Shown: piece after piece, positions 1,581 to 23,480 of the stretch | Layout of the letters: every line of letters starts with the position of its first letter | Position numbering within the stretch: position 1 is the first letter of the stretch | Virus record (IMG/VR): IMGVR_UViG_3300025168_000448 | Location: 1 to 29,042 of that record | DNA length: 29,042 bases | Strand: one strand, 5' to 3' | From: a virus | Notes under the pieces: model-generated | Told to the model about the DNA's origin: nothing | Database searches by the model: none | Seen by the model: only the letters and a program-made list of their open reading frames with translations | Translations under genes and position numbers: made by a program

Positions 1581-1612
1581 GTATTAAATGACACCAAAAG
1601 GTGGAGATGCAT

Positions 1613-2914
1613 ATGTGGGCCGGACTAAGCGTAGGAGAATCGCATCAGCGAATCGACATGGGTAACGAGGTCTTAGATACAATCGCTACTAGTTTACTGT
1701 CCCACCCTCTTGTTAACGAAAGGCTTGCTAAGTCAATAGCCTCTCAATCAATCATCCTAAAAGATGACACTCCTGTTAATTACGCTCCTTTTTGCCCTAC
1801 CGGTGCTGGGTGGTTTGAAGATAGACTAGGCAAGGGCGCTAATGACATCATTAGGGATTTGAGAAAGGCCCGTAGGGTTTTCAAAGAAGATAAAAGTGAG
1901 ATTGACGGTATTATATCTAGCGTCAGAGCCCTCAAGAGTATGGAAGTTGAAGCCACTATCAGTCAACTTGATTGGGGCACAGAGTATAATGACACTATGA
2001 GGAAGATGGGAATTACTGATAAAGATTTACGAGCACTAAGGCTCTTTGGAAACACTAGGAAATCTAGTTTGGTTAGGGCGTGTAACTTTTGGAAATCTGC
2101 AGAAGATTCGCTAACTAAGTTGGATGAGTTTCAAGATGTATGGGGCGAAGAAGAGCAGAACGCTTGGGTAGGTGCTATGCAGAAAAAACAAGATGCTAGG
2201 AAAATGTGGAGGGTTTCACTTCATCAATTTGACGGCCTTTCTAAAGAGCAGCAGAAGTGGATGAAACTCGCCAAGGAAGAGGTAGAGTTCAAGGGTGCCA
2301 TGAGTGCTAGGAGTATAACTGAGAACCTCATCACTAAAGGTGTTACTAGGCTGAATGTTAATCGCTTGTCCAAGTTGCTCAACATGTACGGTGAAGAAAT
2401 TAACATCATCAAAGCCCCTCGTAAAGGTGAGTACATGTGTTTATCTAAAGACGGGTTGATTATCAAAGACCCTTGGGCATATGCTGCGGGCTTCCTCGAT
2501 GCTGACGGTTACATTACTATTACTGAAAGAGGGGAACCTCGTGCAGGCTTTATCGCTACAGGTGACAGAGGTCGTATGCATTGCGAGCAGTTGCATAAAA
2601 ACCTTGGAGCAGGTGTGCTTCAACTTGACCAAAAGGTGTACAAGAACGGACAAAGAAGTCAGCACCGAGTAAGTTTCTATTCTAAAGACGACTTGACTAA
2701 ATTACTAGACAAGATTACCCCTCATCTTAGAATGAAAGACCAGCAAGCGAAGGCTGTAGTGGCCTTCCTTGCTGAGAAGGACCCATTACGCAAAACTCAA
2801 TTAAAGAGGTTCGTACAGTTCTCTAATAGAGAAGGGACTGCTAAGGGCGAAGAGTCTTTGAAAGAATGGGGAATTGACAGAGACACAATAATAAGTTGGG
2901 CGGAGGAATTGTAA
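1613..2914 (+). CDS. LAGLIDADG-endonuclease-domain protein in the packaging operon
   Basis: The C-terminal third carries one clear LAGLIDADG motif (AAGFLDADGYI, from about residue 291), followed by an alternating beta/helix pattern typical of these homing-endonuclease folds. The first 270 residues are helical, rich in Lys/Glu and Trp, and not recognised; residues around 230-270 could form a DNA-binding helix-turn-helix. With a single motif the protein would act as a dimer if it is active. ATG 1613 is preferred because GGTGGAG at 1600-1606 is well placed. GTG 1601 and ATG 1607 are in-frame alternatives. The stop TAA overlaps the portal start (TAATG). It sits between terL and portal, where many phages carry a packaging-associated HNH nuclease, so a packaging role is as plausible as mobility. 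This is inference. Confidence 0.8.
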   Translation: MWAGLSVGESHQRIDMGNEVLDTIATSLLSHPLVNERLAKSIASQSIILKDDTPVNYAPFCPTGAGWFEDRLGKGANDIIRDLRKARRVFKEDKSEIDGIISSVRALKSMEVEATISQLDWGTEYNDTMRKMGITDKDLRALRLFGNTRKSSLVRACNFWKSAEDSLTKLDEFQDVWGEEEQNAWVGAMQKKQDARKMWRVSLHQFDGLSKEQQKWMKLAKEEVEFKGAMSARSITENLITKGVTRLNVNRLSKLLNMYGEEINIIKAPRKGEYMCLSKDGLIIKDPWAYAAGFLDADGYITITERGEPRAGFIATGDRGRMHCEQLHKNLGAGVLQLDQKVYKNGQRSQHRVSFYSKDDLTKLLDKITPHLRMKDQQAKAVVAFLAEKDPLRKTQLKRFVQFSNREGTAKGEESLKEWGIDRDTIISWAEEL

Positions 2915-4701
2915 TGGCAGAAGATAAAGGTAGAATAGGTCGAATGTTAGAGTCAATGGCTAGTCCATTTAGAAGAAGAAGAACTCCTGAGCCACAGATG
3001 CCACTTTGGACAACTGGTATTCAAGAGCCTGTGTTAGTGCAGGGAATTACCATACCTGCTCTTTATGGAGTCTCCCAAGAAAACCTAATTCTAAGGACAG
3101 TGTTGTCCACTCTTCAACAAGAGATATTCCGCAGAGGTTACTATTGGGAAAAGAAGTTTCACAAAAAGTGCTCGGCGTGTGATGCAGAGTTTCAAAACGA
3201 TGTAGACGAGTGTAAGGATTGTGGTAGTACTGAACTGACAGAGCCTGACCCCAGCCAGTTAGTTTACCCAAGATGGTTACTAGAGCAAACTAACTCTATG
3301 GAACAGACCTTTATGGATGTACTTAGAGAAATAGAATACGATTTGAACATCACCGATGATGCCTTCTTGATACTAATTAAGGAGTACTACATCGACCCTG
3401 AGACTAACGAAATGGCCTTTTACAGAGTGAAAGAGTTCGTAAGAGGTGACCCTATCTTTATGCGTATTATTGCGGATAAGCGTGGAGTTAGAGGGGGAAG
3501 ATTTAGAGTCTGCCCTATTCATCGTGACCAAGTTAAGTCCTACAGTGAGGAAGAGAAGCAATGCGACTCTTGTAGTCATGAACTAGAAGATGTTCACCAT
3601 GTGAATACTGCTGGTAGTGGTAAGACGCAGTATTATCTCAAAGGAGAGGTCATACATGTTAGTAAATACAATCCCGGTAAACTCTATGGTCGTTCTCCTG
3701 TCTCTACACTATGGCGACAGGCTATGACTTTGACAGCGATGGACAATTACATGTACACCGCTTATTCAAAGCGAAGAATACCAAGAGGTATACTTAGTAT
3801 CAATACAGAAAATCTTGAATCAATGAAGGCCTTTTGGAAGGCGACTGATGAGAAACTTGAGCGGGACCCTCATTATATTCCTAAAATCGCTACCGAAGGT
3901 AACGGTGGCAAAGGTGGAGTTAACTGGGTCAAACTGATGGACAGTCTTGAAGAGATGCAATACATTGCTGCTCGTGACGAAATGCGTCAACGCATCGCTG
4001 CCTTTTATGGTGTATCGAATGTATTCATGATGGACACTGGTAAATCCGGCGGTCTAAACAATGAAGGTATGCAGATTCTCGTTACTAACCGAGCAGTTGA
4101 GTTCGGTCACAAGGTATACACTGAGCACCTATTCCCACGAATGGGTAAAGAGATGGACCTTACCGATTGGAAATTAACACTCTATCCTAATGAAGAAGAG
4201 GACGAGGTTACAAGGTTACGCCGTGATGAAATGGAAGTTAATATCGCACAGCGTATGATGATGCTAGGTTACCAGCCTAAACTAGCCGAAGATTCAAACC
4301 GTGATATTCGATTCATCTACAAACAACCTGACCCAAGTCAACAACCTCCTCCGGGCCCTCCGGGCGGCGGCGGTATGGGCGGTATGCCTCCGGGTATGCC
4401 TCCGGGCGGCGGTATGGGTGGAATGCGAATGGGCGGTGGCATGGGTCAGCCCGGTGCTTTACCGGGTCGTAACATAAGTCCACAAGGTGCAGCACAGATG
4501 GCTAGACAAGTAGGCATGAGTCAACCGGGTGGAGAAGGAGCAGGTATTCGTACTCCAAGCGGACCAGCGAGCCCTCAAAATAGAACATCGATGGGAGCAG
4601 GTTCACCTGTCTCTAGTGTACAACAGAGAGGTTCGCAGATGGGCGGAGTTCAACAAGCCTCTCAGAATATATTAGATGCTCGTAATTTCAAAGGAGCATG
4701 A
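2914..4701 (+). CDS. Portal protein with two Cys-rich zinc-knuckle insertions
   Basis: The portal is the dodecameric ring at one capsid vertex through which DNA enters and leaves. It is assigned from size (595 residues), position after terL and before the protease/capsid genes, and portal-like segments such as EVIHVSKYNPGKLYGRSPVS and the region around FYGVSNVFMMD. Two Cys-rich motifs interrupt the body: C86-x2-C89 with C100-x2-C103, and C200-x2-H203 with C217-x2-C220. Each could bind zinc. The last 120 residues form a low-complexity Gly/Pro/Met tail followed by a Gln/Ser/Gly-rich segment, probably disordered. ATG 2914 overlaps the upstream stop and has GGAGG at 2902-2906. A GTG at 2896 in the same frame is less likely. 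Confidence 0.85.
   Translation: MAEDKGRIGRMLESMASPFRRRRTPEPQMPLWTTGIQEPVLVQGITIPALYGVSQENLILRTVLSTLQQEIFRRGYYWEKKFHKKCSACDAEFQNDVDECKDCGSTELTEPDPSQLVYPRWLLEQTNSMEQTFMDVLREIEYDLNITDDAFLILIKEYYIDPETNEMAFYRVKEFVRGDPIFMRIIADKRGVRGGRFRVCPIHRDQVKSYSEEEKQCDSCSHELEDVHHVNTAGSGKTQYYLKGEVIHVSKYNPGKLYGRSPVSTLWRQAMTLTAMDNYMYTAYSKRRIPRGILSINTENLESMKAFWKATDEKLERDPHYIPKIATEGNGGKGGVNWVKLMDSLEEMQYIAARDEMRQRIAAFYGVSNVFMMDTGKSGGLNNEGMQILVTNRAVEFGHKVYTEHLFPRMGKEMDLTDWKLTLYPNEEEDEVTRLRRDEMEVNIAQRMMMLGYQPKLAEDSNRDIRFIYKQPDPSQQPPPGPPGGGGMGGMPPGMPPGGGMGGMRMGGGMGQPGALPGRNISPQGAAQMARQVGMSQPGGEGAGIRTPSGPASPQNRTSMGAGSPVSSVQQRGSQMGGVQQASQNILDARNFKGA
4351..4446 (+). repeat. Gly/Pro/Met low-complexity repeat in the portal tail
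   Basis: Imperfect GGG-, CCTCCGGG- and GGCGGTATG-type units encode runs of Pro-Gly, Gly-Gly and Gly-Met. The segment is much richer in G and C than its surroundings. It is coding sequence rather than a regulatory repeat. Its length probably varies between relatives through slippage. Confidence 0.75.
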
Positions 4702-5082: not shown

Positions 5083-5454
5083 ATGAGTAACGAGGGGGAA
5101 AAAGTTGCTGAGCGTCTCATGGGTGCTCTAATATCTAAGATGGAAAACATGGATGTAGGTCTACAGATGCTCAAGGCTGAAAACCAAGAGTTGAGAAGAA
5201 TAATGAACGACCCTACTAATCTTTTGAAAAAGGCTGGTTTTATCAGAGCATCTACTCAAAGGCCACACGACATATCCGATGACCAATTTAGAGGGGATGT
5301 GTCAGATACTATACTCAAAGGAATTGATGCAGAAGGTATAGCGTCTCCGCAAACAAACGCCGATTTCCATAATATGGAATGGGATGACATTCACACACTA
5401 GCCGAGCAAGCGAAGAGTTCAGGCGCTTTAGGCAATCAACTAGGAATGGAGTGA
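5083..5454 (+). CDS. Small head-assembly protein sharing a C-terminal peptide with the scaffold
   Basis: This 123-residue protein begins with a likely coiled coil (residues 5-45, including MGALISKMENMDVGLQMLKA). A Ser/Asp/Gly-rich linker follows, then the motif NMEWDDIHTLAEQA at about residues 95-108. Nearly the same peptide, NMSWDEVHSLAGTVWE, closes the protease-scaffold protein encoded at 11806-13209. Both proteins therefore have the layout coiled coil, linker, short amphipathic peptide, as scaffolding proteins often do. The start ATG follows a fused stop/ribosome-site TGAGGTGA (5070-5077). It may be a second scaffold or an adaptor bringing the portal to the scaffold. That is inference; the shared peptide is seen directly. 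Confidence 0.75.
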   Translation: MSNEGEKVAERLMGALISKMENMDVGLQMLKAENQELRRIMNDPTNLLKKAGFIRASTQRPHDISDDQFRGDVSDTILKGIDAEGIASPQTNADFHNMEWDDIHTLAEQAKSSGALGNQLGME

Positions 5455-5845: not shown

Positions 5846-5861
5846 GCGGCTGGTGATGTGG

Positions 5862-8800
5862 ATGAGAGAAGGCCCATTAGATATTCTTGACAGGTCAAGA
5901 TACTATTTTCTAAAGTCTCTTTCTGACGGCATAGACAAGGCCGACTCTGCTGCTGACTTTTACTTTAATTCAATTAGCGCTCAGCGTAAGGGCTATCTCC
6001 TTAGCGCAGACGATACTGCTCTCGTTAAGATGGTTTACCATGTTATGAAAGACGAGAAATACGGAGAGGGGGGCATCGAACAGACAGGCGACATGAGCAT
6101 GGATAGCGCAGTGCCCATGATGGCTACTGATTATCTTCAAATCAGAGCGGGAAACCATTTAGCAGGTCAGCAATTGGTAGACGGGTCTTACCAAGATAAC
6201 AGGGTCGTAGCACCCGACGCTAAGCAGGGCTTGGCGGGCTATCACCCTACAATGCAAGACGGTGACCCTAACGACCCTTACGCTACTCATGACTTCTTTG
6301 GCTCTGAGTTTAACCCGCTACAGGGTAGGTATCACCATCATTTAGGGGACTTCTATGTGAATCCTAGTAGGGACGGTTACTCAGTAGAGTCTGAAAGTCA
6401 AAGGGCTCATCATAAGGAATTGGCTTGGGACGAGCATAATAGCCAATTAAGTAATGCCTTTCTTTTAGATGCTAGTCATTACGGTGAACTTGACGCTAAG
6501 GCTACTAGTCACTCTCTTTATGAACAGGACTTTGCCAATTGGGAAATAAACAACGATAGAGCGATTGCCAGTAGAAGACTTGAGTTAGAAAATCAAGGGC
6601 TATCTGATGATGAAATAGACCATCAAGTCGCTCTTGACCATATCAATGAAAAGAAACAAGAATGGAAACACAACTTAGGATTTTGGGATTATTTGTTTGG
6701 GATGGAATGGATGACTCCTGAACAGAGAAATATGGCTTATGACCACATTCATAGATTTGGTACAGATGACTCTCAAAGCAAGTTTAACGGTCATAAAACT
6801 GGACACGCCCATGACGACTGGCTTCCTAGATTTAAGCGCAGTTTCGCTCAAAGATTCGCAGGTATGTATGACCACTGGGTAAGAGACCCAACTCATCCCG
6901 GTAGCGGTGGCATGCAAAAAAGAGTGAGATTACCTGACGATGCTGGTATAGTAGGCGTCGAGGATAATTTTCGTAGTTTGACTGAGCATACTGTTGAGGG
7001 ACAAGGTAATGCTTATGATTTGTTAATGAGTTATTTACTAGAAAGAACGGGAATTGAGAGGCAAGATAATCATGGTAAGCCTTACATCCATACTGATGCA
7101 GCAACTGAAGCGGAAGCACAAGTAGCGGGCGTTACGGCTAACTTTGCTAATGGTGGAAAAAATATACAATTTCGTTCTACGACTCCACCAAAGAAAGGAG
7201 GTAAGTCTGCCGACGCTCATTATAGTGGGATAAACAGAGAAATGCATAGGCTTCTTCTGAATATAGACAATGACGGTAATATATATCGAGACGGAGAGCA
7301 TCCACTGTACCCTAACTGGGAAGCCTCTGATTCTCCTCTTAGTCAAACCGAGATTAACAAGATTCTTGCGAGGGCAGAATCTGAGCCAAGAAAAAAGTTC
7401 TCTGCCCGTATAGGTCAAAATGAAAACGCCTTTATGGTAGGTGACGCCATTGACCACAATACTTACCCTGAGTATGCTATGGAAGGTGACGATAAACCTC
7501 ACGAAACTCTCAGTACATATTGGCAGAAGCCTTGGATAGGAGGGGGTATGGCTAAGCCTCCTAACCAACTGTTTGACCTTTTGCATCAAGCGTCTTTGAT
7601 GTATGAAATGGGCGATAATCCTCCCGTCTATGAAGACAAACCAAAAGACGGTGACAAATCAGTGTATACTGACGCTTGGGAAAAAATAAAGGAAGCAGAA
7701 GAAGGAGAGCGACAATATCCAATCAAGCGCAATAAGCATGGTCAGCATGAAAGTTTGTTATTTTCAAGGAGTAAGCGACATATCAACGCTCGTCATGACC
7801 ATGATTCGGAAGGGGGTTTGGAGTCAGGCGCTTCGGTATTAGGACTAATTGCTAGTTTCGCTCAGCCCCAGCACGAATTAACTAGAATGAATGTAGGTGG
7901 TAAAGAAAAAACCACCAGTATAACAGGGGACGCTACAGATGCACCTACTAATCTAAATCCTCATAACAAGCGATTTAGTTCATCAATTTCAGGGCATTCG
8001 CCTAGTGTACAAGTTATGAGACACGCCACTTGTTTTAACCCTGCCTTTATCAATAGAATGTATAGTGAATATCATAATGCAAGAGAGGCAACGGGTAGGT
8101 TTCATAAAGATTTAATGTCTACTGAACAGCGATACAAAGAGTATCAGCGTATTCGCCAAATGATTAGTAATGGTAAAGATGCAAGAGTTTTACCGATTAG
8201 TAATGCATTTACCGGCTCAGGAGGCGCTTATGAGTTTAACAAAAAGATTGATAGAAACGCTCACACTTACCATAGAATTGGCTCTATGTGGAGAGTGGAT
8301 AACCCGCCTTTGAGTCCGGGCACGGGCATACAGCAACTGTCGCCTGCCTCTACACATACTACTTACGGCGGCCATCAAGACCTAAAAGATTTAGAAATTA
8401 AAGACCCCGAAGGTGTATCGATTCAAACCCCTCAGGAACTAAATGCATATATTGATAATTTGGATAAAGAGTTCAGAAATGAATTGGCTAAGTTAGAAGC
8501 GCACGAACATAAGCCTGAAGCATGGACAGAGCAACTACCTGACGGCACTTCTCGCCAAGTTCAATTTACTTCTGAAGAAATGAAAGAGCAGCGGATTGAT
8601 GCACTGAAAGGAGAGTATCAGCGCAAAATAGAAAGACTGCAGCAAAAGTTTACTCACGACCCTTCTTCATATCAGACCTTACAGGCAGGCGATAAGAGGA
8701 TTACTATGGCACGGGTTAACCCTGCGGCTCAGATGACAGAGGAAGAGGATAAGCGACTGGCTATGCGTCAAGCACCTGAGGCTTACTTGTCAGAAGATGA

Positions 8801-11792
8801 GGACGAGTTGAATAGACTTACAGAAACCGCCGGTCAAATAATGTCGCAGTTAGATGATAAGGAGTTGTCTGCGGAGGATAGAGAAAGACTTACTCATAAA
8901 CTCCATGACCTTAACGAAGAAATTGCAGCAAAGGACAGGGCTATAGTTCACGGTGCTAAAACTCGACTAAATATAAACGATGAGGCCAAGGGTGCAGAAC
9001 ATGAGCAGTATCAACACGCTTCTAAAGCGTTTGAAGATGCAGCAAACCATGTCAGAAAAATGTTAGGAGACTATCATAACGAACTGTTTGACCCTAACTT
9101 GTCCCTTGAAACCTTAGAGGCCAATGTCAGAATGTTCGCTAAGATGGTTAATGATTATCTACACATCGCACCCCATGAAGCGCACGGCCTGACTACAATG
9201 GGTATAGACGACCGTGCAGTTGAGAGACCAATGGCCGGTGCAGCACTGACTAGTGACATAAAGCGAGTAGTGCATGATAGCCCTGTCAAGGTGGGCATAA
9301 AAGACTTGATAGATTACAAAGGTCTTGTTGAAAAATTAGGGCTACCTGATTATGATTCTAACCCACATGTGCAGCATACTATCACTAATTTCCTTGACAT
9401 GTTTGAAAAGAAGTTTGTAGAATCAGGACATGACCCTAACTTCCAACTCCCTGTTATGACAGTAGGTCAGTATCTGAAGGAGACTGGCAAGGTAGACCCT
9501 GACATGGACTTTGAAGAAGAAATTGTAAATCTGAAAACAAATAAGAAAAGTCGTAAAGAAGATTTATTCCAATTAACTAATCAAATAGACAGACTTGTAA
9601 AGCCTTTCCAAGGTAAAGGGGTAAGGGGTGCAAAGGCAGATATTGACAAAATGAATGAGCAAGCAGGCCTAATGTACCATGTCGCTCATAACGGCGACCA
9701 CCGCTTAGCAGAGCCTACTACTCAGAGGGTTGGCTCAAAGTCCGGTCAAAGAGGCAGTAGTGAAAGTAAACCTGAGAAAAAAGTTTCTGATGCTTACAAT
9801 ACGCAGCAGGTTTTGCAGTCTTTGTTATTCAGTGACCCTAACATTGAGCCTAGAGAAGCGCAAAGCGTCAGTACTAGTCAGATTGGGTTTGGCAAAGTAC
9901 CTATAGATGCATTCGGTCCAAACTCACATTCTGTACCTAGCATTTACAATTCTAATGGTCTAAGGCATGAGTTTGGAGAAAGAGTAACACCTTCATTCGA
10001 TTACCATATTGCGCCTAATGGAGAAATTAGGCTAAGAGACAACAAGAAACCTATGCGTTTGTTAAATCCGCTACAAAATATATTTGAGTCAATCGCCCCT
10101 CACTTATCACATATGTTGCATCCTGATTACACACACCATAATGGTTCGACTAAGGACGATTTATTAGGTAAAGACAGACAGGGTGCACATAAACACATGG
10201 ACAGTATGGGTGTTGTGAACAGTATGGACACTCGCAAGGTCGGCAAGTCTGAAATGGGGTTAGCGTCTTTGACTAACCCTGATATAATCAGAAAGGAACT
10301 TGGAAAAGAAGTACCTCTTCTACAACCGATGCATCGTATATTCAAATTAGCAGACTTGGAGCACCTTCGTGGCTTTACAGGCGACTGGATAGTTTCGGTA
10401 ATGCCTGAAGGTGAAAGAGGATTCGTAAAGAAAGATGATGATGAAATCTCAGCCAAACCGTTCACATTATCAAAGGAAGATAAAGAGAACTTCAAGAAAG
10501 TTACCGATAACAATTTCCACGCCGATGTCATAAAGACAGAAGATGGTTACTACATCTTTGATGTAATAGAGTATGATGACAAGGAAGTACATGATACATT
10601 ACTAGATGACCGCATCAAGATTCTAAGAGGGGGCATGGAAGGAGTAGAGAACATACATGTCCCAAGTGCCAGTGACACGAGACTTACAGACGATGCAGGT
10701 CTTGAATTGATAGTAGAGGATTTGCAGAAAGAGCACGATAAGTTGATTTTGCGAGATGCTAAGTCTACTTATATGGTAGGCGAAATGCGCCATCCTAAGT
10801 GGGTCATGCTTAACGAAGGGAATGATGTAGTGCTAAGAGTACTTGAAAGAAGAGGGGGCGGCCCTTACACTTATCGCTTGGGTACCGGACCTATTACACA
10901 AGAAGATGACTTAGGTGATAGAGGCGTTGAGTCAGGTGGAGAAACTTACATGGATGTAGGAGCCGCATTCGACAGCCCTGATAAATACAACGAAGGTGAC
11001 CATGTTAGGGTCAATGTCTCTAATGTAGCCGAGTCAGAGGCTAGTAGCGGTCAGAAACTGTACACAGTTAGTTCTTCAGATGTCAAAGAAGAAGCAGAAG
11101 GTGAGGGTCTCGTTAGCCAAGAGACGCTAGGTATGCTATCCAAATCTGAATCTACTCAATGGCTATGCGAGTTATCAAGGGCCAGTAGTGGAGTCAGAGT
11201 AACTATGCCACAAGGCGATGTACTATACAAGTGCACACAGACTGGTAACATGTGGACAGTGCATAGTCCACTGGCTTCTAACTCCTATCTCATTCGTTTG
11301 TCTGAAAGCCAAAGACAGTATTGGAGTCCGGTTGCAGGTGCTTTGTTGAAAGCAGGCTTGGAAATCAGAGAAGAAGAAGATGAAAACGGAGGCTTCTCTG
11401 CTGACGGAATAGAACCCGGCGAACCTTTAGTCAAGCCTAAGAAAGTTAAAGGTACTGACTGGTGGGACGAAGAGCAAAAAAAGAAGGTACTTGTCAAAGG
11501 ATTACAGTTAGTCGAAAAACTCATCAAGAGCGGGGCGGGCTCTGTTGGGCAATCTAGCACAGGTGCTATGGGACTGGGCATAGGTTATGGTACTCCTATA
11601 GAGTCGCCGACTGGTCCGACTAACTTGCACGACGAAAAGACAATGCCTGACTTTGATGCTAGAAAACGCCCCGGAGAAGATTCTTACATAGAGCCGGGAG
11701 CGGAGGACAGCGAGCCTGCTAAGCACATGACTATACCTTTAGAAGGTGGTACTCTTGAAGTAACAGGTGAATCTGCGACATTCCGTACTTGA
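5862..11792 (+). CDS. Giant head-region protein (1976 aa) with a degenerate DNA-ligase-like domain
   Basis: This is by far the largest gene in the window, lying between the portal group and the protease. The first 1480 residues are unrecognised: mixed alpha/beta, many His, Asp and Tyr residues, and likely coiled coils near residues 860-930 and 975-1100. Residues about 1495-1745 resemble an ATP-dependent DNA ligase. WIVSVMPEGER (around 1507-1518) fits motif I, YYIFDVIEYDDKEV (around 1561-1575) fits the motif IIIa region, DKLILRDAKSTYMVGEMRHP (from about 1626) fits motifs IV and V, and an OB-like beta stretch follows. The motif I lysine is Met (MPEGER instead of KxDGER), so nucleotide transfer is unlikely. 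The C-terminus is Gly/Pro/Asp-rich. GTG 5853 and ATG 5856 are alternative starts; GGTGATG at 5852-5858 is the ribosome site for ATG 5862. An internal capsid or ejection protein is possible but not shown. Confidence 0.75.
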   Translation: MREGPLDILDRSRYYFLKSLSDGIDKADSAADFYFNSISAQRKGYLLSADDTALVKMVYHVMKDEKYGEGGIEQTGDMSMDSAVPMMATDYLQIRAGNHLAGQQLVDGSYQDNRVVAPDAKQGLAGYHPTMQDGDPNDPYATHDFFGSEFNPLQGRYHHHLGDFYVNPSRDGYSVESESQRAHHKELAWDEHNSQLSNAFLLDASHYGELDAKATSHSLYEQDFANWEINNDRAIASRRLELENQGLSDDEIDHQVALDHINEKKQEWKHNLGFWDYLFGMEWMTPEQRNMAYDHIHRFGTDDSQSKFNGHKTGHAHDDWLPRFKRSFAQRFAGMYDHWVRDPTHPGSGGMQKRVRLPDDAGIVGVEDNFRSLTEHTVEGQGNAYDLLMSYLLERTGIERQDNHGKPYIHTDAATEAEAQVAGVTANFANGGKNIQFRSTTPPKKGGKSADAHYSGINREMHRLLLNIDNDGNIYRDGEHPLYPNWEASDSPLSQTEINKILARAESEPRKKFSARIGQNENAFMVGDAIDHNTYPEYAMEGDDKPHETLSTYWQKPWIGGGMAKPPNQLFDLLHQASLMYEMGDNPPVYEDKPKDGDKSVYTDAWEKIKEAEEGERQYPIKRNKHGQHESLLFSRSKRHINARHDHDSEGGLESGASVLGLIASFAQPQHELTRMNVGGKEKTTSITGDATDAPTNLNPHNKRFSSSISGHSPSVQVMRHATCFNPAFINRMYSEYHNAREATGRFHKDLMSTEQRYKEYQRIRQMISNGKDARVLPISNAFTGSGGAYEFNKKIDRNAHTYHRIGSMWRVDNPPLSPGTGIQQLSPASTHTTYGGHQDLKDLEIKDPEGVSIQTPQELNAYIDNLDKEFRNELAKLEAHEHKPEAWTEQLPDGTSRQVQFTSEEMKEQRIDALKGEYQRKIERLQQKFTHDPSSYQTLQAGDKRITMARVNPAAQMTEEEDKRLAMRQAPEAYLSEDEDELNRLTETAGQIMSQLDDKELSAEDRERLTHKLHDLNEEIAAKDRAIVHGAKTRLNINDEAKGAEHEQYQHASKAFEDAANHVRKMLGDYHNELFDPNLSLETLEANVRMFAKMVNDYLHIAPHEAHGLTTMGIDDRAVERPMAGAALTSDIKRVVHDSPVKVGIKDLIDYKGLVEKLGLPDYDSNPHVQHTITNFLDMFEKKFVESGHDPNFQLPVMTVGQYLKETGKVDPDMDFEEEIVNLKTNKKSRKEDLFQLTNQIDRLVKPFQGKGVRGAKADIDKMNEQAGLMYHVAHNGDHRLAEPTTQRVGSKSGQRGSSESKPEKKVSDAYNTQQVLQSLLFSDPNIEPREAQSVSTSQIGFGKVPIDAFGPNSHSVPSIYNSNGLRHEFGERVTPSFDYHIAPNGEIRLRDNKKPMRLLNPLQNIFESIAPHLSHMLHPDYTHHNGSTKDDLLGKDRQGAHKHMDSMGVVNSMDTRKVGKSEMGLASLTNPDIIRKELGKEVPLLQPMHRIFKLADLEHLRGFTGDWIVSVMPEGERGFVKKDDDEISAKPFTLSKEDKENFKKVTDNNFHADVIKTEDGYYIFDVIEYDDKEVHDTLLDDRIKILRGGMEGVENIHVPSASDTRLTDDAGLELIVEDLQKEHDKLILRDAKSTYMVGEMRHPKWVMLNEGNDVVLRVLERRGGGPYTYRLGTGPITQEDDLGDRGVESGGETYMDVGAAFDSPDKYNEGDHVRVNVSNVAESEASSGQKLYTVSSSDVKEEAEGEGLVSQETLGMLSKSESTQWLCELSRASSGVRVTMPQGDVLYKCTQTGNMWTVHSPLASNSYLIRLSESQRQYWSPVAGALLKAGLEIREEEDENGGFSADGIEPGEPLVKPKKVKGTDWWDEEQKKKVLVKGLQLVEKLIKSGAGSVGQSSTGAMGLGIGYGTPIESPTGPTNLHDEKTMPDFDARKRPGEDSYIEPGAEDSEPAKHMTIPLEGGTLEVTGESATFRT

Positions 11793-11819
11793 TTAAATAG
11801 TATGAATGGATTTAATCAA
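11789..11819 (+). promoter_or_regulatory. 10-bp perfect inverted repeat at the protease start; possible promoter
   Basis: TTGATTAAAT (11789-11798) and ATTTAATCAA (11810-11819) are exact reverse complements separated by 11 bases. The left arm covers the stop of the giant gene, and ATG 11806 lies in the loop. There is no ribosome site in front of ATG 11806. The A/T-rich TTAAATAG is centred about 27 bases before ATG 11824, the spacing of an archaeal TATA box to a leaderless start. The element may be an operator/promoter or an RNA hairpin controlling translation. There is no T-run after it, so it is not a standard terminator. Confidence 0.45.
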
Positions 11820-13209
11820 AACAATGTCGGCATCGATGACCCTGCGTACCTCCCCTGTTAACCACAGGGGTAGTATTAGTATAGTCAAGGCTGACAATGA
11901 CCTCGTAATTGCTGGCTACGCATCTGTTGAGATGGTAGATAAGCAAGGGGACTTAATTACCCGTGGAGCATTGAAGAACGCATTTGGCGACTTCATGAAG
12001 GCAGATGCCTTCCGCAATGTACAACTCGCACACTCTAACATACAGGTTGGTAGTGTAATACCACAGTACACAGACTCCGATGGTCGTGTATGGAAGTCCG
12101 GCGTCGATGACGCTGGCATGTTCGTTGTCATACAACTAAGAGATGACATCGAGAAGGCTCGTGAAGTAGCCAATGAGATTCGCAAAGGGGCACTTAGAGG
12201 CTTCAGTATTGGAGGACAAGCATTCAAGAGAATGCGAAAGAGTGACGCTGAACACGGCGATTACACTGAGATTTCCAAACTGGAACTACACGAAGTGACA
12301 ATTTGCGAAAAAGGGATTAACCCTGAAGCGACCTTTAGAATACTAAAGGAGGACACAACAATGGTAAATGATGAAAATAATGCATTAAGCGAACTGTCGA
12401 CTGTACTGGATAGATTAAACAAGCGTATGGATAATATGGAAAAAGAAGATGGCGAACTGCCTGCATTCCTAAAACCTAAAGTCAACGATGATGATTCAGA
12501 TTCAGATTCAGACAAAGATGAAGATAAAGATAAAGATAAAAAGGATGATGAAAAAATGAGTGAAAAGAAAGAAAACCCGTTTGAAAAGAGCGATGGCTAC
12601 TCTGATGTTATCACAAGTGAATACCTAAACTGGATGGAAAACACCCTGAAGTCTCAGGGCGTTAACACTGGAGAAGCACGCAGTCACTTTGACGATGTTG
12701 CTAAGGCTAACCTTGGTAGCACACCCGAAGAGTTCCCTGATGAACAGATGAATGGACAAACCAGTGACCGCACATCAGAAGGCGGTAACCCGTCTACTGG
12801 CGCTGTTGGTAAGATTAACTCCGGCAAAGTTGCTAAGGGTTACTTGAGTCCGACTTCCGTAAGCCCTACAGATATTGAGGCTGCTTACGAAGTTTACAAG
12901 GCTGCAGCATTAGAAGAACAGTTCAAGGGTAACCTTGGTACTGTATTCGGTGACCGTCTACAAAAGGAACTTAGCCACGAAGCAGAGAGCCGTGCAGCAG
13001 CACAGTTCGACGCTCGTACACCACTATCTAACATTGAAAAGGCGCTTTCTGACCTAAGCAATCGCATTGACAACATTAGTACTGCTCCGGCAGAATCAAC
13101 TATCCGCAAGTCGGATTCATCTTCCACAGTAGGAATACCATCTACAGAGGAACTAGCAAACATGTCGTGGGACGAAGTACACAGTCTCGCAGGGACGGTT
13201 TGGGAATAA
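11806..13209 (+). CDS. Prohead maturation protease fused to scaffold
   Basis: Residues 1-180 look like an HK97-type prohead protease (peptidase family S78). There is a His in VQLAHSN (H76), a Ser in LRGFSIGG (S134), and a conserved acidic strand LELHEVTI (around 159-166). It would cleave scaffold and other head proteins inside the procapsid. The remainder (186-467) is a scaffold-like region: a coiled coil, an Asp/Ser/Lys linker (about 229-250), helical segments, and the closing peptide NMSWDEVHSLAGTVWE. A strong internal ribosome site and in-frame ATG at 12361 suggest that the scaffold is also made alone. The true N-terminus is uncertain: ATG 11806 has no ribosome site, and ATG 11824 or 11836 could be leaderless starts. 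Confidence 0.9.
   Translation: MDLIKTMSASMTLRTSPVNHRGSISIVKADNDLVIAGYASVEMVDKQGDLITRGALKNAFGDFMKADAFRNVQLAHSNIQVGSVIPQYTDSDGRVWKSGVDDAGMFVVIQLRDDIEKAREVANEIRKGALRGFSIGGQAFKRMRKSDAEHGDYTEISKLELHEVTICEKGINPEATFRILKEDTTMVNDENNALSELSTVLDRLNKRMDNMEKEDGELPAFLKPKVNDDDSDSDSDKDEDKDKDKKDDEKMSEKKENPFEKSDGYSDVITSEYLNWMENTLKSQGVNTGEARSHFDDVAKANLGSTPEEFPDEQMNGQTSDRTSEGGNPSTGAVGKINSGKVAKGYLSPTSVSPTDIEAAYEVYKAAALEEQFKGNLGTVFGDRLQKELSHEAESRAAAQFDARTPLSNIEKALSDLSNRIDNISTAPAESTIRKSDSSSTVGIPSTEELANMSWDEVHSLAGTVWE
12345..12352 (+). promoter_or_regulatory. Internal ribosome binding site for a nested scaffold start
   Basis: AAAGGAGG lies inside the protease-scaffold gene, 8 nt before ATG 12361, which is in frame (Met186). 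It is one of the best ribosome sites in the window, with a core like that of the major capsid gene. Its position is exactly the junction between the protease domain and the scaffold region. Confidence 0.75.
12361..13209 (+). CDS. Scaffold protein from a nested in-frame start (predicted)
   Basis: Starting at ATG 12361, the same frame gives a 282-residue protein: coiled coil (SELSTVLDRLNKRMDNMEKE), acidic repeat linker, helical region, and the terminal peptide NMSWDEVHSLAGTVWE. This matches the known lambda C/Nu3 arrangement, where the scaffold is encoded in frame within the 3' part of the protease gene. The full-length fusion would deliver the protease into the procapsid and the nested product would be the bulk scaffold. 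The sequence supports the start signal; the product itself is predicted. Confidence 0.65.
   Translation: MVNDENNALSELSTVLDRLNKRMDNMEKEDGELPAFLKPKVNDDDSDSDSDKDEDKDKDKKDDEKMSEKKENPFEKSDGYSDVITSEYLNWMENTLKSQGVNTGEARSHFDDVAKANLGSTPEEFPDEQMNGQTSDRTSEGGNPSTGAVGKINSGKVAKGYLSPTSVSPTDIEAAYEVYKAAALEEQFKGNLGTVFGDRLQKELSHEAESRAAAQFDARTPLSNIEKALSDLSNRIDNISTAPAESTIRKSDSSSTVGIPSTEELANMSWDEVHSLAGTVWE
12493..12555 (+). repeat. Hexamer-type simple repeat coding an acidic Asp/Ser/Lys linker
   Basis: Three exact GATTCA units (12493-12510) are followed by repeated GATAAA/GATGAA units and encode DSDSDSDKDEDKDKDKKDDE. It is in frame inside the scaffold and probably forms a flexible charged linker. Repeats of this type change length easily. 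Confidence 0.85.
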
Positions 13210-13225: not shown

Positions 13226-14407
13226 ATGGCACGAAATTACATGAGAACAGTTAACGATATGGAACGCTATTATTACGGTGCGGGTAGTTCAATGGGCTAC
13301 ACTTACAGTGGAAGCGAACTATTGAAAGCAGATGCTCCGTTATTGAGCACAACCGCTGGTACATACCAAGCGATTTACGGACGAAAAGTTTGGAGTCAGT
13401 TGAACCAAGAGTTCAATGCCTTCTCTATACTACCTAAGAAACCTTGGGATAGAAGCGGATGGCGTGTTGTCACTGCTAAGCCTTCAACATCTGTTGGTGG
13501 CGGAGTTGCTGAAAACGCAACCCTTCCTGAAACTACCAAGCCTGTATTCCAAAATGTTGCAGCAAAGCCTAAGACTATCGCACACACATTCGATATGTCT
13601 GAGGTTGCAATCTTCTTGAATGACAAGGATGACGGACTGGGCGACATTCGCTCTGTCCTAAAGGAAGAGATGGGTAAGCACCACGCTGAGCACATCAACC
13701 AAATGCTAACACAGGATGTAGACACACCTGCAGGTAACGACATCGAGTCCTTGGACCGTGTTACTGCAAGCGCTGCTACAATGGATGTAAGCGGTTCTTC
13801 AACTGCAGACCCTGCAGTGGCTCACGCAGACGCTGCTGCTGACCTTGACATTTACAGCATTGACCGAAGTAATAACACTTGGTCCGATGCAGAGACTGTC
13901 TTGGCTAACACAGCAAGCAATGTCCGTGCAGGTAACGCAGTATTATCCCTTGACCACCTTGACGAAATGTTCCAGAAAATCTGGATTCGTGGTGGTAACC
14001 CTAAGGTTATGCTAACAGGATATGACACTCTAATGCGTATTCAGCAACTTCTACAGTCTCAGCAGAGATTCATGGAAGAGAAGAGAGTTGTACCAACTTA
14101 CAACGGTGTCAAAGGTGTACCGGGTGTTGAGGCTGGATTCATAGTCGCAACTTACAACGGTGTCCCAATCATCCCATCTAAGGATGTACAGGCAGAACCT
14201 AACAGCGGTATTAGCCGTATTTACTGCTTAGACACAGATTACCTATACTACAGTACTGCGAAACCAACTCAATACTTTGAGTCCGGTATCGAGACTGGAG
14301 ACCCATTCGCTGTTAACAGGCTTGGACAGGAAGGACTTTACCGCACAATGGGTGAAGTTTGGACTACTTTCTTTGGAGGTCAAGGTTCAATCCGAGACTT
14401 GTCTTGA
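13226..14407 (+). CDS. Major capsid protein, HK97 fold
   Basis: This 393-residue protein directly follows the protease-scaffold gene. Its ribosome site, AAGGAGG at 13212-13218, is 7 nt before ATG, as expected for the most abundant virion protein. Features typical of the fold are an early segment likely to form the N-arm and E-loop (residues about 35-110, with GWRVVTAKPSTSVGG), a helix-rich P-domain (KEEMGKHHAEHINQML), an A-domain segment around GNPKVMLTGYDTLMRIQQLL, and a C-terminal beta region (EGLYRTMGEVWTTFFGG). A Thr/Ala/Asp-rich segment near 175-215 may be a surface insertion. There is no obvious cleavable delta-type coiled coil at the N-terminus, which fits a separate scaffold. Confidence 0.9.
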   Translation: MARNYMRTVNDMERYYYGAGSSMGYTYSGSELLKADAPLLSTTAGTYQAIYGRKVWSQLNQEFNAFSILPKKPWDRSGWRVVTAKPSTSVGGGVAENATLPETTKPVFQNVAAKPKTIAHTFDMSEVAIFLNDKDDGLGDIRSVLKEEMGKHHAEHINQMLTQDVDTPAGNDIESLDRVTASAATMDVSGSSTADPAVAHADAAADLDIYSIDRSNNTWSDAETVLANTASNVRAGNAVLSLDHLDEMFQKIWIRGGNPKVMLTGYDTLMRIQQLLQSQQRFMEEKRVVPTYNGVKGVPGVEAGFIVATYNGVPIIPSKDVQAEPNSGISRIYCLDTDYLYYSTAKPTQYFESGIETGDPFAVNRLGQEGLYRTMGEVWTTFFGGQGSIRDLS

Positions 14408-14853: not shown

Positions 14854-15258
14854 TTGCCTACGATAACCTATCTAGGTCCATATATGTACAGGCGTATGCT
14901 TGGCATGAGTGGACAATGGGTCAGAGGAGAGCCTGTTCAGGTTAGTCAGGAATGGCTTAACCACAACTCGATATACAGAGTATCGACTGAACAGTTCAGA
15001 ATTGAAGGCGATGAAGGTGTCACAGTAGACGCTGGAAACGACGGACTTCCTGACAGTGGTTGGACTAAGAAAGACATAGGCGCATGGCTTAAAGGAAAAG
15101 GCGAGGCTGTGAGTGGGTATACTACCAAGAGCAAGTTGCTCGACATGGTAAAGACCACTCTCAGTCCGCCTGCTCCTGAGCCTGTAGTCGAAGAGGTCTT
15201 AGTCGAAGAGACTATAATCGAAGACCCAGTGGATGAAACATTAGGAGTTGAAGAATAA
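14854..15258 (+). CDS. HeH/SAP-like domain protein, head or neck
   Basis: The start is TTG at 14854, set by the fused stop/ribosome site TGAGGTGA (14840-14847). The 134-residue protein has a beta-type N-terminal part (TYLGPYMYRRMLGMSGQWV onward), then a short helix-extension-helix segment at about 68-102 (DSGWTKKDIGAWLKGKG through YTTKSKLLDMVKT) resembling HeH/SAP/LEM-like modules, which are often nucleic-acid or protein-binding. A Pro/Glu/Val-rich acidic tail follows, with EEVLVEETIIEDP. Proteins of this layout occur next to capsid genes in many tailed viruses, but their exact job is often unknown. The stop overlaps the next start (TAATG). Confidence 0.6.
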   Translation: MPTITYLGPYMYRRMLGMSGQWVRGEPVQVSQEWLNHNSIYRVSTEQFRIEGDEGVTVDAGNDGLPDSGWTKKDIGAWLKGKGEAVSGYTTKSKLLDMVKTTLSPPAPEPVVEEVLVEETIIEDPVDETLGVEE

Positions 15259-15791
15259 TGGCATTCGCAAAGACACAAGACACAAGGGTACATGTCATGG
15301 GTGACATGACAATGATAACAGGAACTTTCACTGACGGTGGTACAGAAGTATCATACGCTAGTCAACTAAGTCAGGTATTTGCAGCGGGAGGTCATTTGAC
15401 TTCCTTACAGAGTACTGGCATTGATGTTAACAATGGGAATGTTGCAATTGCTTCAACCGTACTTACAGTAAGTGCAGTTGATGCAAGATTACATCTTGCT
15501 GCTGGACAATCACTATACAATGCAGCAGGTAACAGATTAGGAGTTATTGCATCTGTAGACAGTGCTACTCAAGTCACATTGGCAGCACCCGGTCTAACCG
15601 TGGCTGTCGTTGATGAAGACATTTACTATGTACTGGGTGCTAACAAGCCCTCTATTACCTTAATTTCAACATCATTGGATGTTTCAATTGATGAGACAAA
15701 TAAATTGGTGATTTTTGAAAGTGGAAATAGAAGTGCCGCTAGTGTAGTTTCAGCAACCGATGGTCGCTGGTGGATTCTAGGAACTCGTTGA
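15258..15791 (+). CDS. Beta-rich virion protein, tandem family member 1
   Basis: First of four consecutive related genes. It has the family's N-terminal pattern (a strand, then MTMITGTFTDGGTEVS) and a short closing strand (GRWWILGTR). Between them, residues about 60-128 form an inserted beta module around LAAGQSLYNAAGNRLGVIAS and ending in DEDIYYV. This module resembles insertions in several other virion proteins of this window. There is no signal peptide or membrane segment. The number of copies and location after the capsid genes suggest capsid surface, neck or fibre subunits. The function is not established. Confidence 0.6.
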   Translation: MAFAKTQDTRVHVMGDMTMITGTFTDGGTEVSYASQLSQVFAAGGHLTSLQSTGIDVNNGNVAIASTVLTVSAVDARLHLAAGQSLYNAAGNRLGVIASVDSATQVTLAAPGLTVAVVDEDIYYVLGANKPSITLISTSLDVSIDETNKLVIFESGNRSAASVVSATDGRWWILGTR

Positions 15792-15802
15792 GGTGATGAA
15801 CC

Positions 15803-16129
15803 TTGGCAGTAACATTTAGCAAAAGACCAATCTACCTTGGCGACAGGATTATTCTGACCGGCTCTTACGAGGCGGGAGACACAGTTATTACTACTGCTGC
15901 TATTCCAGTACCGGGTATACTAATCGACGCAATCGCAGTAACAGGACTAGCGCCTACTAACATTGTCTTAGATAACGCTACGGTAGCAGGTGGTGCAGGT
16001 ACTATTAACCTCGCTACGCAGGCTGCACTAAGTGCCGATAGACGGAGTTTTCAGTTATTCGGTATCGACGGTAGCCCTGCGACTAACAACGGTGCTGGTA
16101 AGTTCACAGTCTATGGAAGGCGAGCATAA
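15803..16129 (+). CDS. Beta-rich virion protein, tandem family member 2 (core form)
   Basis: This 108-residue protein has the simplest version of the shared fold: MAVTFSKRPIYLGDRIILTG at the start, AGDTVITTAAIPVPG next, and KFTVYGRRA at the end. It starts with TTG, directed by TGAGGTGATG at 15789. It has no extra domain, so it probably shows the ancestral unit of the family. The stop TAA overlaps the ATG of the next gene (ATAATG). Confidence 0.6.
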   Translation: MAVTFSKRPIYLGDRIILTGSYEAGDTVITTAAIPVPGILIDAIAVTGLAPTNIVLDNATVAGGAGTINLATQAALSADRRSFQLFGIDGSPATNNGAGKFTVYGRRA

Positions 16130-16914
16130 TGGCAGTTACTTTTGAAAATAGAATAACTAGTATCGGTGACCAACTTATGGTCAGAGGTACTTTCGCCGCT
16201 GCAGATACAACTATCGATTTAAGCCCCTACATGAGGGTTGTCGATAGCGTTAACATATTACCCGCTAGTGGAGGCACTACGCCAGTTATAGCCGCTACTG
16301 CTGATGTTACTGGTGCATTCAATATATCATTACCTGATGCGTGTCACCTCGATTCATTGACTGGTACAACCGTCACTTTGTTTGGAGGACAGACAGGTGT
16401 AGGTTCAATAACAGTTGCTGACGGAGATGCCGATGTAACTATGACAGAAAAACAAATAATTACAATTGTTTCTACTGACGGTACAAGTAAAGTATACGCA
16501 GTAATTGACGACAATGCAACCACCGTAGCCACAGCCGCTATTTTAGCAACAGACTCCGATGTTGGGGCAGGTGCCGCAGGTGCGGCCTTAGTCGGAGCGA
16601 TTGCAGTTGCAGTTAATACGACAGGTACTAAGGCGACACAGAATGCATTTTTAGTACAACTCAAAGCAGCAATAGAGCATGCTAATGGTCACAACGGTAA
16701 GATAGTAGTATCTGCCGTACCGGGTGCTGCTGATGGAGCGCAGTCAATCGTTCTAACTCAGAAAACACTTGCATCCGATGGAACATCGGGTAACGCCACT
16801 ATTACAAGTGATGTGCACGGTGTTGGAGGCGGAGGCGGTGGAGCCGTTGCAGGCTTCACAGGTACTGGTGCTACGGCAGCAGGTATATTTACAGCAATAG
16901 GGAGGAAGGGCTGA
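16129..16914 (+). CDS. Beta-rich virion protein, tandem family member 3 with inserted domain
   Basis: Begins MAVTFENRITSIGDQLMVRG, closely matching member 2, and ends GIFTAIGRKG. Between them residues about 105-245 form an extra domain beginning EKQIITIVSTDGTSKVYAVI, with a helix near KAAIEHANGHNGKIVVS and a Gly-rich stretch GGGGGGAVAG. I recall similar domains from structural proteins in marine viral metagenomes, but this was not checked. The extra domain makes the protein 261 residues, against 105-108 for its unexpanded relatives. GGAAGG upstream may serve as the ribosome site. Confidence 0.6.
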   Translation: MAVTFENRITSIGDQLMVRGTFAAADTTIDLSPYMRVVDSVNILPASGGTTPVIAATADVTGAFNISLPDACHLDSLTGTTVTLFGGQTGVGSITVADGDADVTMTEKQIITIVSTDGTSKVYAVIDDNATTVATAAILATDSDVGAGAAGAALVGAIAVAVNTTGTKATQNAFLVQLKAAIEHANGHNGKIVVSAVPGAADGAQSIVLTQKTLASDGTSGNATITSDVHGVGGGGGGAVAGFTGTGATAAGIFTAIGRKG

Positions 16915-17231
16915 TGGTAGTTACTTTCGATAACCCGACTAATGTAAACGGCCTTGTAGTTGTAGCCTTCAAGTCAACTGCAGGTGCAACGGCTTCTATT
17001 GATGTTAGTACTTACATGAATGAGATTTTTCAAGTTCATGTTAATCCCATTGGCGGTGCAACATTCACACTCGCCCCTCTTAGCGGAGGTGCCCCTACTC
17101 CGATTAACATACCTATATTCACAGAGTGGGCAGGTACAACAGTTACACTTAAAGTAACAAACCAAGATACAGGTGTAGTAAGTGCTACAATAGGCGCCTC
17201 TACATCAGGGATAGTAATAGGAAGGAAGTGA
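16914..17231 (+). CDS. Beta-rich virion protein, tandem family member 4 (core form)
   Basis: This 105-residue protein shows the family pattern again: MVVTFDNPTNVNGLVVVAF, then ATASIDVSTYMNEIFQVHV, ending GIVIGRK. The IDVSTYM segment matches IDLSPYM of member 3. The start ATG overlaps the upstream stop (TGATG) and GGAGGAAGG lies just before it. The function is unknown; it is likely a virion subunit, like its neighbours. Confidence 0.6.
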   Translation: MVVTFDNPTNVNGLVVVAFKSTAGATASIDVSTYMNEIFQVHVNPIGGATFTLAPLSGGAPTPINIPIFTEWAGTTVTLKVTNQDTGVVSATIGASTSGIVIGRK

Positions 17232-22995: not shown

Positions 22996-23478
22996 ATGGT
23001 GAACGGCGAAATAGACCCACGCTCCGTTGATGCAATGGAGAACTTCAAGAAATACAGCGAAGATGCAAGTAAGAATATGAAGGCGCTGCAAACCCAAATG
23101 GACAAGTTCACCAACAGCATGTCTATGACCAAAGCACATAGTACCGACCTCAGAGAATCTCTCAGACAAATGGGTGGTATAGAGCCATTCAAGCAAATGG
23201 AAGAGTCAATCAAAGGTGTCCAAGAAGGTCTTGAAAAAACCAAGTCTACTCGCCAAACTCCTCAAGCAAATACTGCAGAAAGGCGACCCTTAGGTAATTC
23301 CCCTAGTCAAGAAGAGCAGGGTAATGTCACTGTCAATCTAAGAATAGATGTCAGTGGAGTTACAGACAGAACTGACAAAAGGTCACTTGCAAAAGAAATC
23401 AGTGCAATGGTTACCAAAGAATTACGCTCTAAAATAGGCGGACCGCTTAGCAGCAGCGGTTTTAGTAGGAGTGGTTGA
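22996..23478 (+). CDS. Short tape-measure-like tail protein
   Basis: It sits exactly where a tape measure gene is expected. The first 85 residues form a long helix or coiled coil (ENFKKYSEDASKNMKALQTQ onward). A Gln/Pro/Ser linker follows, then a segment NVTVNLRIDVSGVTDRTDKR with helix LAKEISAMVTKELRSKIGG, which resembles the C-terminal ends of tape measure proteins. It has only 160 residues, while tape measures usually exceed 600, and no transmembrane segment. ATG 22996 is chosen because GGGGTGA (22984-22990) is 5 nt upstream; GTG 22987 is an alternative. It may be a true minimal tape measure or only a remnant. Confidence 0.55.
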   Translation: MVNGEIDPRSVDAMENFKKYSEDASKNMKALQTQMDKFTNSMSMTKAHSTDLRESLRQMGGIEPFKQMEESIKGVQEGLEKTKSTRQTPQANTAERRPLGNSPSQEEQGNVTVNLRIDVSGVTDRTDKRSLAKEISAMVTKELRSKIGGPLSSSGFSRSG

Positions 23479-23480
23479 GT

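What the first reader, a model, noticed from the sequence alone, without database searches (positions are those of the whole stretch)
10340..11095. Degenerate DNA-ligase-like domain inside a giant head-region protein
Residues about 1495-1745 of the 1976-residue protein line up by eye with ATP-dependent DNA ligases in the right motif order. WIVSVMPEGER stands for W-V-E-x-K-x-D-G-E-R, YYIFDVIEYDDKEV for the F-D-x-x-x-x-D-G strand, and DKLILRDAKSTYMVGE then HPKWVML for motifs IV and V. A beta region that could be the OB fold follows. The nucleophilic Lys is Met and the motif IV Glu-Gly is Asp-Lys, so catalysis is probably lost while the fold may still hold DNA ends or nicks. A ligase-fold protein apparently co-opted as a head component would be unusual.
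Basis: partly seen in the sequence, partly recalled or inferred. Interest (0 to 1): 0.8.

Follow-up and report, generated by a model that had tools for sequence, protein, structure and literature searches.

The report
Dead DNA-ligase domain in archaeal viruses
A huge head-region protein of abundant viruses that probably infect marine archaea carries a DNA-ligase fold whose catalytic residues are gone in all 195 versions examined yet which is strongly conserved, so it very likely binds something rather than joining DNA, and the "DNA ligase" reported for these viruses is probably this inactive domain.

Summary
Residues about 1490-1747 of the 1979-residue protein (window 5853-11792) are an ATP-dependent DNA-ligase fold (nucleotidyltransferase plus OB). 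Support: Pfam DNA_ligase_A_M 1.2e-6; ligase models match all relatives; AlphaFold2 model pLDDT 83; Foldseek best match Pyrococcus furiosus DNA ligase, 9e-11, across both domains. In 195 distinct relatives the motif I Lys is never Lys but a bulky W, M, Y, F, L or I. Motif III Glu and the first motif V Lys are also gone. Yet it is the best-conserved part of the protein, dN/dS about 0.05 against 0.3 upstream. All 61 capsid-anchored relatives with enough upstream sequence carry it, always between portal and prohead protease. The virus is magrovirus-like. In 72 related records up to 109 kb no free-standing ATP-dependent ligase was found. A paper places the magrovirus "ATP-dependent DNA ligase" beside the prohead protease (PMC7318539), so that gene is probably this one. 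Best reading: a pseudo-ligase binding module in a head/ejection protein. Fold and loss of catalysis are well supported computationally; virion location and ligand are inferred.

The parts
5853..11792 (+). Giant head-region protein, 1979 aa; 1.6-2.1 thousand aa in nearly all relatives
5853..10247 (+). N-terminal ~1465 residues, fast-evolving, no family match (dN/dS about 0.3)
10317..10820 (+). Degenerate nucleotidyltransferase (adenylation) domain of ATP-dependent DNA-ligase type
   Evidence: Pfam PF01068 1.2e-6; AF2 pLDDT 83; Foldseek PDB
10386..10418 (+). Motif I remnant WIVSVMPEGER; nucleophile position (10401-10403) is Met instead of Lys; the Arg is kept
   Evidence: Never Lys in 195 distinct relatives; Arg in 190/195
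10521..10532 (+). Motif III remnant (ADVI for LDGE[IL]); Asp kept, Glu lost
   Evidence: Asp 189/195, no Glu at the Glu position
10548..10589 (+). Motif IIIa-type strand-turn YYIFDVIEYDDKEV
10737..10784 (+). Motif IV region DKLILRDAKSTYMVGE; Glu-Gly not conserved, RD..STYM.GE nearly invariant
10791..10811 (+). Motif V remnant HPKWVML; Trp invariant, first catalytic Lys replaced by Leu/Met/Val/Ile
   Evidence: W 195/195; first Lys position L120/M50/V21/I4
10821..11093 (+). OB-fold domain
   Evidence: AF2 strands at model residues 193-282; Foldseek alignments span it
11094..11789 (+). Conserved C-terminal region of the giant protein, function unknown
   Evidence: dN/dS about 0.09; conserved across clades
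2896..4701 (+). Portal protein (context)
   Evidence: phrog_18178 1.8e-64; ~28% to Druskaviridae portals
11806..13209 (+). Prohead protease (S78) with acidic scaffold-like C-terminal part (context)
   Evidence: PF04586 7.5e-11
13226..14407 (+). Major capsid protein (context)
   Evidence: phrog_24667 9.5e-53; 32% to HVTV-1/HCTV-1

Best explanation
The region is a pseudo-ligase: a two-domain ATP-dependent DNA-ligase fold (nucleotidyltransferase plus OB, without the N-terminal DNA-binding domain) that has lost the catalytic Lys and most metal- and phosphate-handling residues and is kept under strong purifying selection as a binding module near the C-terminus of a ~2000-residue protein encoded between portal and prohead protease in magrovirus-like tailed viruses. 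Well supported by computation: fold, loss of catalytic residues, selection, universality, gene position. Inferred: the giant protein is packaged in or on the head near the portal, perhaps ejected with the DNA, and the dead domain uses its conserved surface (RD..STYM.GE.RHPKW plus the OB element RG..P.TYRLG.GP) to hold nucleic acid, most likely an end or nick of the packaged or entering genome, as snurportin uses a dead guanylyltransferase-type fold to hold an RNA cap. These viruses would then depend on the host's DNA ligase.
For: Fold. Catalytic loss in 195 distinct sequences. Strongest conservation and lowest dN/dS (0.04-0.06 v. about 0.3). Gene order portal - giant - protease - capsid in every informative locus; domain in 61/61 capsid-anchored loci with upstream sequence. 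No free-standing ligase in 72 records. Same slot in Druskaviridae holds MuF and zeta-toxin/ADP-ribosyltransferase proteins of the type linked to head delivery. Dead-nucleotidyltransferase precedent: snurportin-1 matches over motif I to IIIa (PDB profile 0.027; PF21974 in 6/13 members, best 0.0032).
Against: No virion proteomics and no binding data. Bulky hydrophobic residues where Lys sat suggest the nucleotide pocket is filled, so a nucleotide or cap-like ligand is not assured; the ligand could be a protein. Snurportin similarity is weak. Position next to head genes does not prove packaging.
Confidence: 0.65

Rival explanations
1. Pure protein-protein scaffold: the ligase fold was recruited as a rigid structural module (for example docking on portal, capsid or prohead protease) and binds no nucleic acid.
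For: Pocket positions are hydrophobic in all relatives; adjacent to the prohead protease and capsid genes.
Against: The strongest conservation includes basic residues in the motif IV-V loop (R.HPKW, RD) and the motif I Arg, and the OB fold is kept, the parts ligases use on nucleic acid.
Confidence: 0.25
2. Injected effector: the giant protein is ejected with the DNA and the dead ligase competes with the host ligase or shields nicks in incoming DNA, as a member of the polyvalent head-delivered protein class.
For: The same slot in Druskaviridae encodes MuF and zeta-toxin/ADP-ribosyltransferase proteins; N-terminal part evolves fast.
Against: No MuF or other effector domain found here and no sequence match to the Druskaviridae proteins; conflict effectors usually vary between relatives, whereas this domain is universal and very conserved.
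Confidence: 0.15
3. Active ligase with an unusual nucleophile, for example the Lys one residue upstream in the KWYDGKR clades.
For: 79/195 relatives have Lys one residue before the nucleophile position; those clades keep YDG.
Against: The window and most clades lack it; the K-x-D-G spacing is otherwise fixed; motif III Glu and the first motif V Lys are lost in the same proteins.
Confidence: 0.05
4. Replication accessory factor: made as a non-virion protein that recruits the host ligase or clamp to viral forks.
For: The literature lists a ligase among magrovirus replication genes (PMC10768690, PMC12999244, PMC10160649).
Against: It is embedded in the head gene cluster in every locus, away from PolB.
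Confidence: 0.07

Closest known systems
Archaeal/eukaryotic ATP-dependent DNA ligases (P. furiosus 2cfm, Thermococcus 4eq5, human Lig1/3/4)
   Same: Nucleotidyltransferase and OB folds in the same order; PM element, motif I G-x-R, motif IIIa, motif IV-V loop and Trp recognisable.
   Different: No nucleophilic Lys, motif III Glu or first motif V Lys; no N-terminal DNA-binding domain found; embedded in a ~2000-aa head-region protein.
Snurportin-1 m3G-cap-binding domain
   Same: Non-catalytic nucleotidyltransferase fold reused for binding; P-x-G-x-R in place of K-x-D-G-x-R; aligns over motif I to IIIa.
   Different: Eukaryotic import adaptor without this OB arrangement; weak sequence similarity; ligand here unknown.
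Magrovirus (Magrovirales) 'ATP-dependent DNA ligase'
   Same: Reported next to the prohead protease gene in a group A magrovirus (PMC7318539), exactly where the giant gene lies; probably the same gene.
   Different: Described as part of an active replisome; the domain lacks the catalytic residues.
Druskaviridae HVTV-1/HCTV-1 proteins between portal and protease (MuF, zeta toxin/ADP-ribosyltransferase)
   Same: Same genomic slot, similar size; related portal, protease and capsid.
   Different: No detectable sequence relation to the giant; no ligase domain found by Pfam.
T4 gp63 (RNA ligase 1 / tail fibre attachment protein)
   Same: Ligase-family protein with a separate role in virion assembly (PMC3004832).
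   Different: gp63 is catalytically active and not a virion component.

Membership tests
ATP-dependent DNA ligase (active enzyme) | Motif I nucleophilic Lys (K-x-D-G-x-R) | tested here: not met
   W84/M53/Y26/F16/L14/I2, Lys 0 of 195
ATP-dependent DNA ligase (active enzyme) | Motif I Arg | tested here: met
   Arg 190/195, His 5
ATP-dependent DNA ligase (active enzyme) | Motif III Glu (DGE) | tested here: not met
   Asp kept; the Glu position is I/V/F etc.
ATP-dependent DNA ligase (active enzyme) | Motif IV Glu-Gly | tested here: not met
   Columns variable (Glu in 38/148); Gly not conserved
ATP-dependent DNA ligase (active enzyme) | Motif V Lys residues after the Trp (W-x-K-x-K) | tested here: not met
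   First Lys L/M/V/I in 195/195; second is R or K in 115/148 but Asn in the window
ATP-dependent DNA ligase (active enzyme) | Motif VI (R-x-D-K) at the end of the OB fold | tested here: inconclusive
   No such motif seen at the end of the OB region, but alignment to ligases there is uncertain
ATP-dependent DNA ligase fold (superfamily) | Nucleotidyltransferase fold followed by OB fold | tested here: met
   AF2 pLDDT 83; Foldseek 9e-11 to 2cfm over ~350 columns; rmsd is high, which fits a different domain orientation
Cellular ATP-dependent DNA ligase | N-terminal DNA-binding domain (DNA_ligase_A_N) | tested here: not met
   No Pfam match upstream; minimal ligases also lack it
Snurportin-type cap binder | m3G-cap binding | not testable with these tools
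   Only weak profile similarity
Magrovirales | Head module related to Druskaviridae, virus-encoded PolB, 90-110 kb genome | tested here: met
   MCP/portal ~30% to Druskaviridae; PolB in 21/22 long relatives up to 109 kb; direct comparison with type genomes not possible
Virion component | Presence in purified particles | not testable with these tools
   Uncultured viruses; gene position only

The most novel reading that the evidence does not exclude
A whole order of abundant marine archaeal viruses carries no DNA ligase of its own but keeps a dead ligase inside a giant virion protein, where it clamps genome ends or nicks at the portal or during entry: an enzyme fold converted into a packaged genome-end binder, mistaken in the literature for a replisome ligase.
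Probability: 0.3. Interest if true: 0.78.

Novelty: new variant of a known kind. Interest (0 to 1): 0.62.

Why it matters
It probably corrects a repeated statement that magroviruses encode an active ATP-dependent DNA ligase and replicate with little need of host factors: the only ligase-like gene found is catalytically dead and lies in the head module. It also gives a deep, universal example of a pseudoenzyme made from a DNA ligase in a virus structural gene cluster, with clades that keep intermediate states (KWYDGKR, FYDGKR, MPEGER), so the conversion of an enzyme to a binding module can be traced and tested.

Tried and rejected
First AlphaFold2 run with 18 close relatives failed (pLDDT 39) and was discarded; the 48-sequence alignment gave 83. 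Genome contigs gave no relative. tblastn against GenBank phages found no relative of the domain. PHROGs had no match for the giant. A profile of the giant found nothing in Druskaviridae or methanogen-virus proteins of the same slot. NAD-dependent ligase was looked for and not found in 22 long relatives. Considered and rejected: a chance match by eye (several libraries and structure agree); recent pseudogene decay (dN/dS about 0.05 and universal retention); a mis-called frame (open frames of 1.6-2.1 thousand aa in nearly all relatives). Magrovirus type genomes ON649702 and OR863078 are not in the collections, and the original magrovirus paper and the Poseidoniales-virus paper could not be read.

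Full report
What was checked. Pfam's DNA_ligase_A_M matches the excised region at 1.2e-6, above its gathering score, and the whole protein at 2.4e-5, just below it. NCBIfam's ATP-dependent ligase model TIGR00574 matches 18 of 18 close relatives, and Pfam matches 16 of 16 and 13 of 13 in two broader sets. A profile of 48 diverse relatives finds archaeal and human DNA ligases in the PDB (4eq5 1.5e-5, Lig3 2.5e-4). A single protein from a diverged clade aligns to archaeal ligase 4eq5 in two blocks, the first covering the ligase PM element and KYDGAR, where it reads FYDGKR.

Structure. With 18 close relatives AlphaFold2 failed (pLDDT 39). With 48 relatives down to 38% identity it gave pLDDT 83.4 and pTM 0.68. 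Foldseek against the PDB gives the P. furiosus DNA ligase at 9.2e-11 and then archaeal and human DNA ligases, with human mRNA guanylyltransferase at 2.3e-7. Against predicted viral proteins the best match is an unnamed 827-residue protein at 2e-21, then DNA ligases and capping enzymes. Alignments of about 350 columns span both domains; the high rmsd fits a different relative orientation of the two domains (inference).

Catalytic residues. In 195 distinct domains the motif I Lys position is W, M, Y, F, L or I and never Lys. The motif I Arg is Arg in 190, the motif III Asp is kept in 189 while its Glu is gone, and the first motif V Lys is L, M, V or I in all, although the Trp before it is invariant. 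In 79 relatives a Lys stands one residue upstream (KWYDGKR), out of register; those clades still lack the motif III Glu and first motif V Lys. The states seen in different clades suggest stepwise decay from K-x-D-G (inference; no tree was built). New invariants appeared instead: RD..STYM.GE.R(H)PKW and the OB element TY.LG.GP.

Selection and distribution. The domain is the best conserved part of the protein (about 0.8 identity against 0.3-0.45 over most of the rest). dN/dS is 0.04-0.06 for the domain, 0.09-0.10 for the C-terminal tail and 0.28-0.32 for the N-terminal 1465 residues (pairwise Nei-Gojobori, and synonymous sites are near saturation for the more distant pair). Among loci found by the domain, all 107 with markers on both sides have the order terminase/portal - giant - protease/capsid, with no exception. 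Loci found independently by their capsid protein carry the domain in 61 of 61 cases with at least 3.5 kb upstream.

Which viruses. Capsid and portal are about 30% identical to those of Druskaviridae (HVTV-1, HCTV-1), and 21 of 22 long relatives (80-109 kb) encode a family B DNA polymerase. This fits Magrovirales as described in PMC10768690 and PMC12999244. The type genomes were not available for direct comparison, so the assignment and the Poseidoniales host are inferred.

The published ligase. Those profiles and PMC10160649 count an ATP-dependent DNA ligase among magrovirus replication genes. In 72 records searched here, every match to the ligase family lies in a long open frame of the giant's kind; four records gave no family match at all at E <= 10, although the more sensitive domain profile finds the domain in those examined. 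No NAD-dependent ligase was found in 22 records. [quoted passage not shown] In the window the giant ends 13 bases before the protease gene. The published ligase is therefore very probably this protein (inference, not yet shown by sequence comparison).

How it may work. A conserved, non-catalytic nucleotidyltransferase-OB pair is most simply a binding module. Snurportin-1, which binds a trimethylguanosine RNA cap with a guanylyltransferase-like fold (relation from general knowledge; cap complex 1XK5 cited in PMC5396385), matches the viral profile weakly over motif I to IIIa and is a precedent. The gene slot in Druskaviridae holds MuF and zeta-toxin/ADP-ribosyltransferase proteins, a type discussed as head-delivered (polyvalent and MuF proteins, PMC5512222, listed, abstract only), so packaging and ejection of the giant is plausible but untested. 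T4 gp63 shows that a ligase-family protein can act in virion assembly apart from catalysis (PMC3004832). Whether the ligand is DNA, RNA or a protein is open.

Limits. All sequences are metagenomic. Virion location, ligand and entry role are inferred. The count of 195 is of distinct sequences, many closely related.

Noticed in passing
window 5083-5454 (C-terminal part) and 11806-13209 (last 15 aa): Two head-region proteins flanking the giant share a short C-terminal motif M-x-W-[DE]-[DEQ]-[IVL]-H-x-[LM]-A. In fetched loci 533 ORFs carry the core motif, all from these two families and all near the C-terminus, none elsewhere (loci partly redundant). Possibly a capsid- or scaffold-binding tag.
   Followed up: partly
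window 1601-2914: A protein with a weak LAGLIDADG / homing-endonuclease-like part sits between terminase and portal and is conserved there in relatives; Druskavirus HVTV-1 has an HNH endonuclease in the same place.
   Followed up: partly
window 15258-17231: Four consecutive small ORFs after the capsid gene look like paralogues (MAVTF... starts), perhaps decoration proteins.
   Followed up: no
window 23475-25976 and 25986-27971: Two adjacent tail-region proteins have similar N-termini and look like paralogues.
   Followed up: no
L124:10623-14564 and L125:11929-15561 (HVTV-1, HCTV-1): Druskaviridae proteins in the slot of the giant carry zeta-toxin kinase domains, and in HVTV-1 also an ADP-ribosyltransferase domain.
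   Followed up: partly
BFVD A0A516LT18 (827 aa, unnamed): Closest predicted viral structure to the domain (Foldseek 2e-21, 24% identity); probably a more distant relative worth identifying.
   Followed up: no
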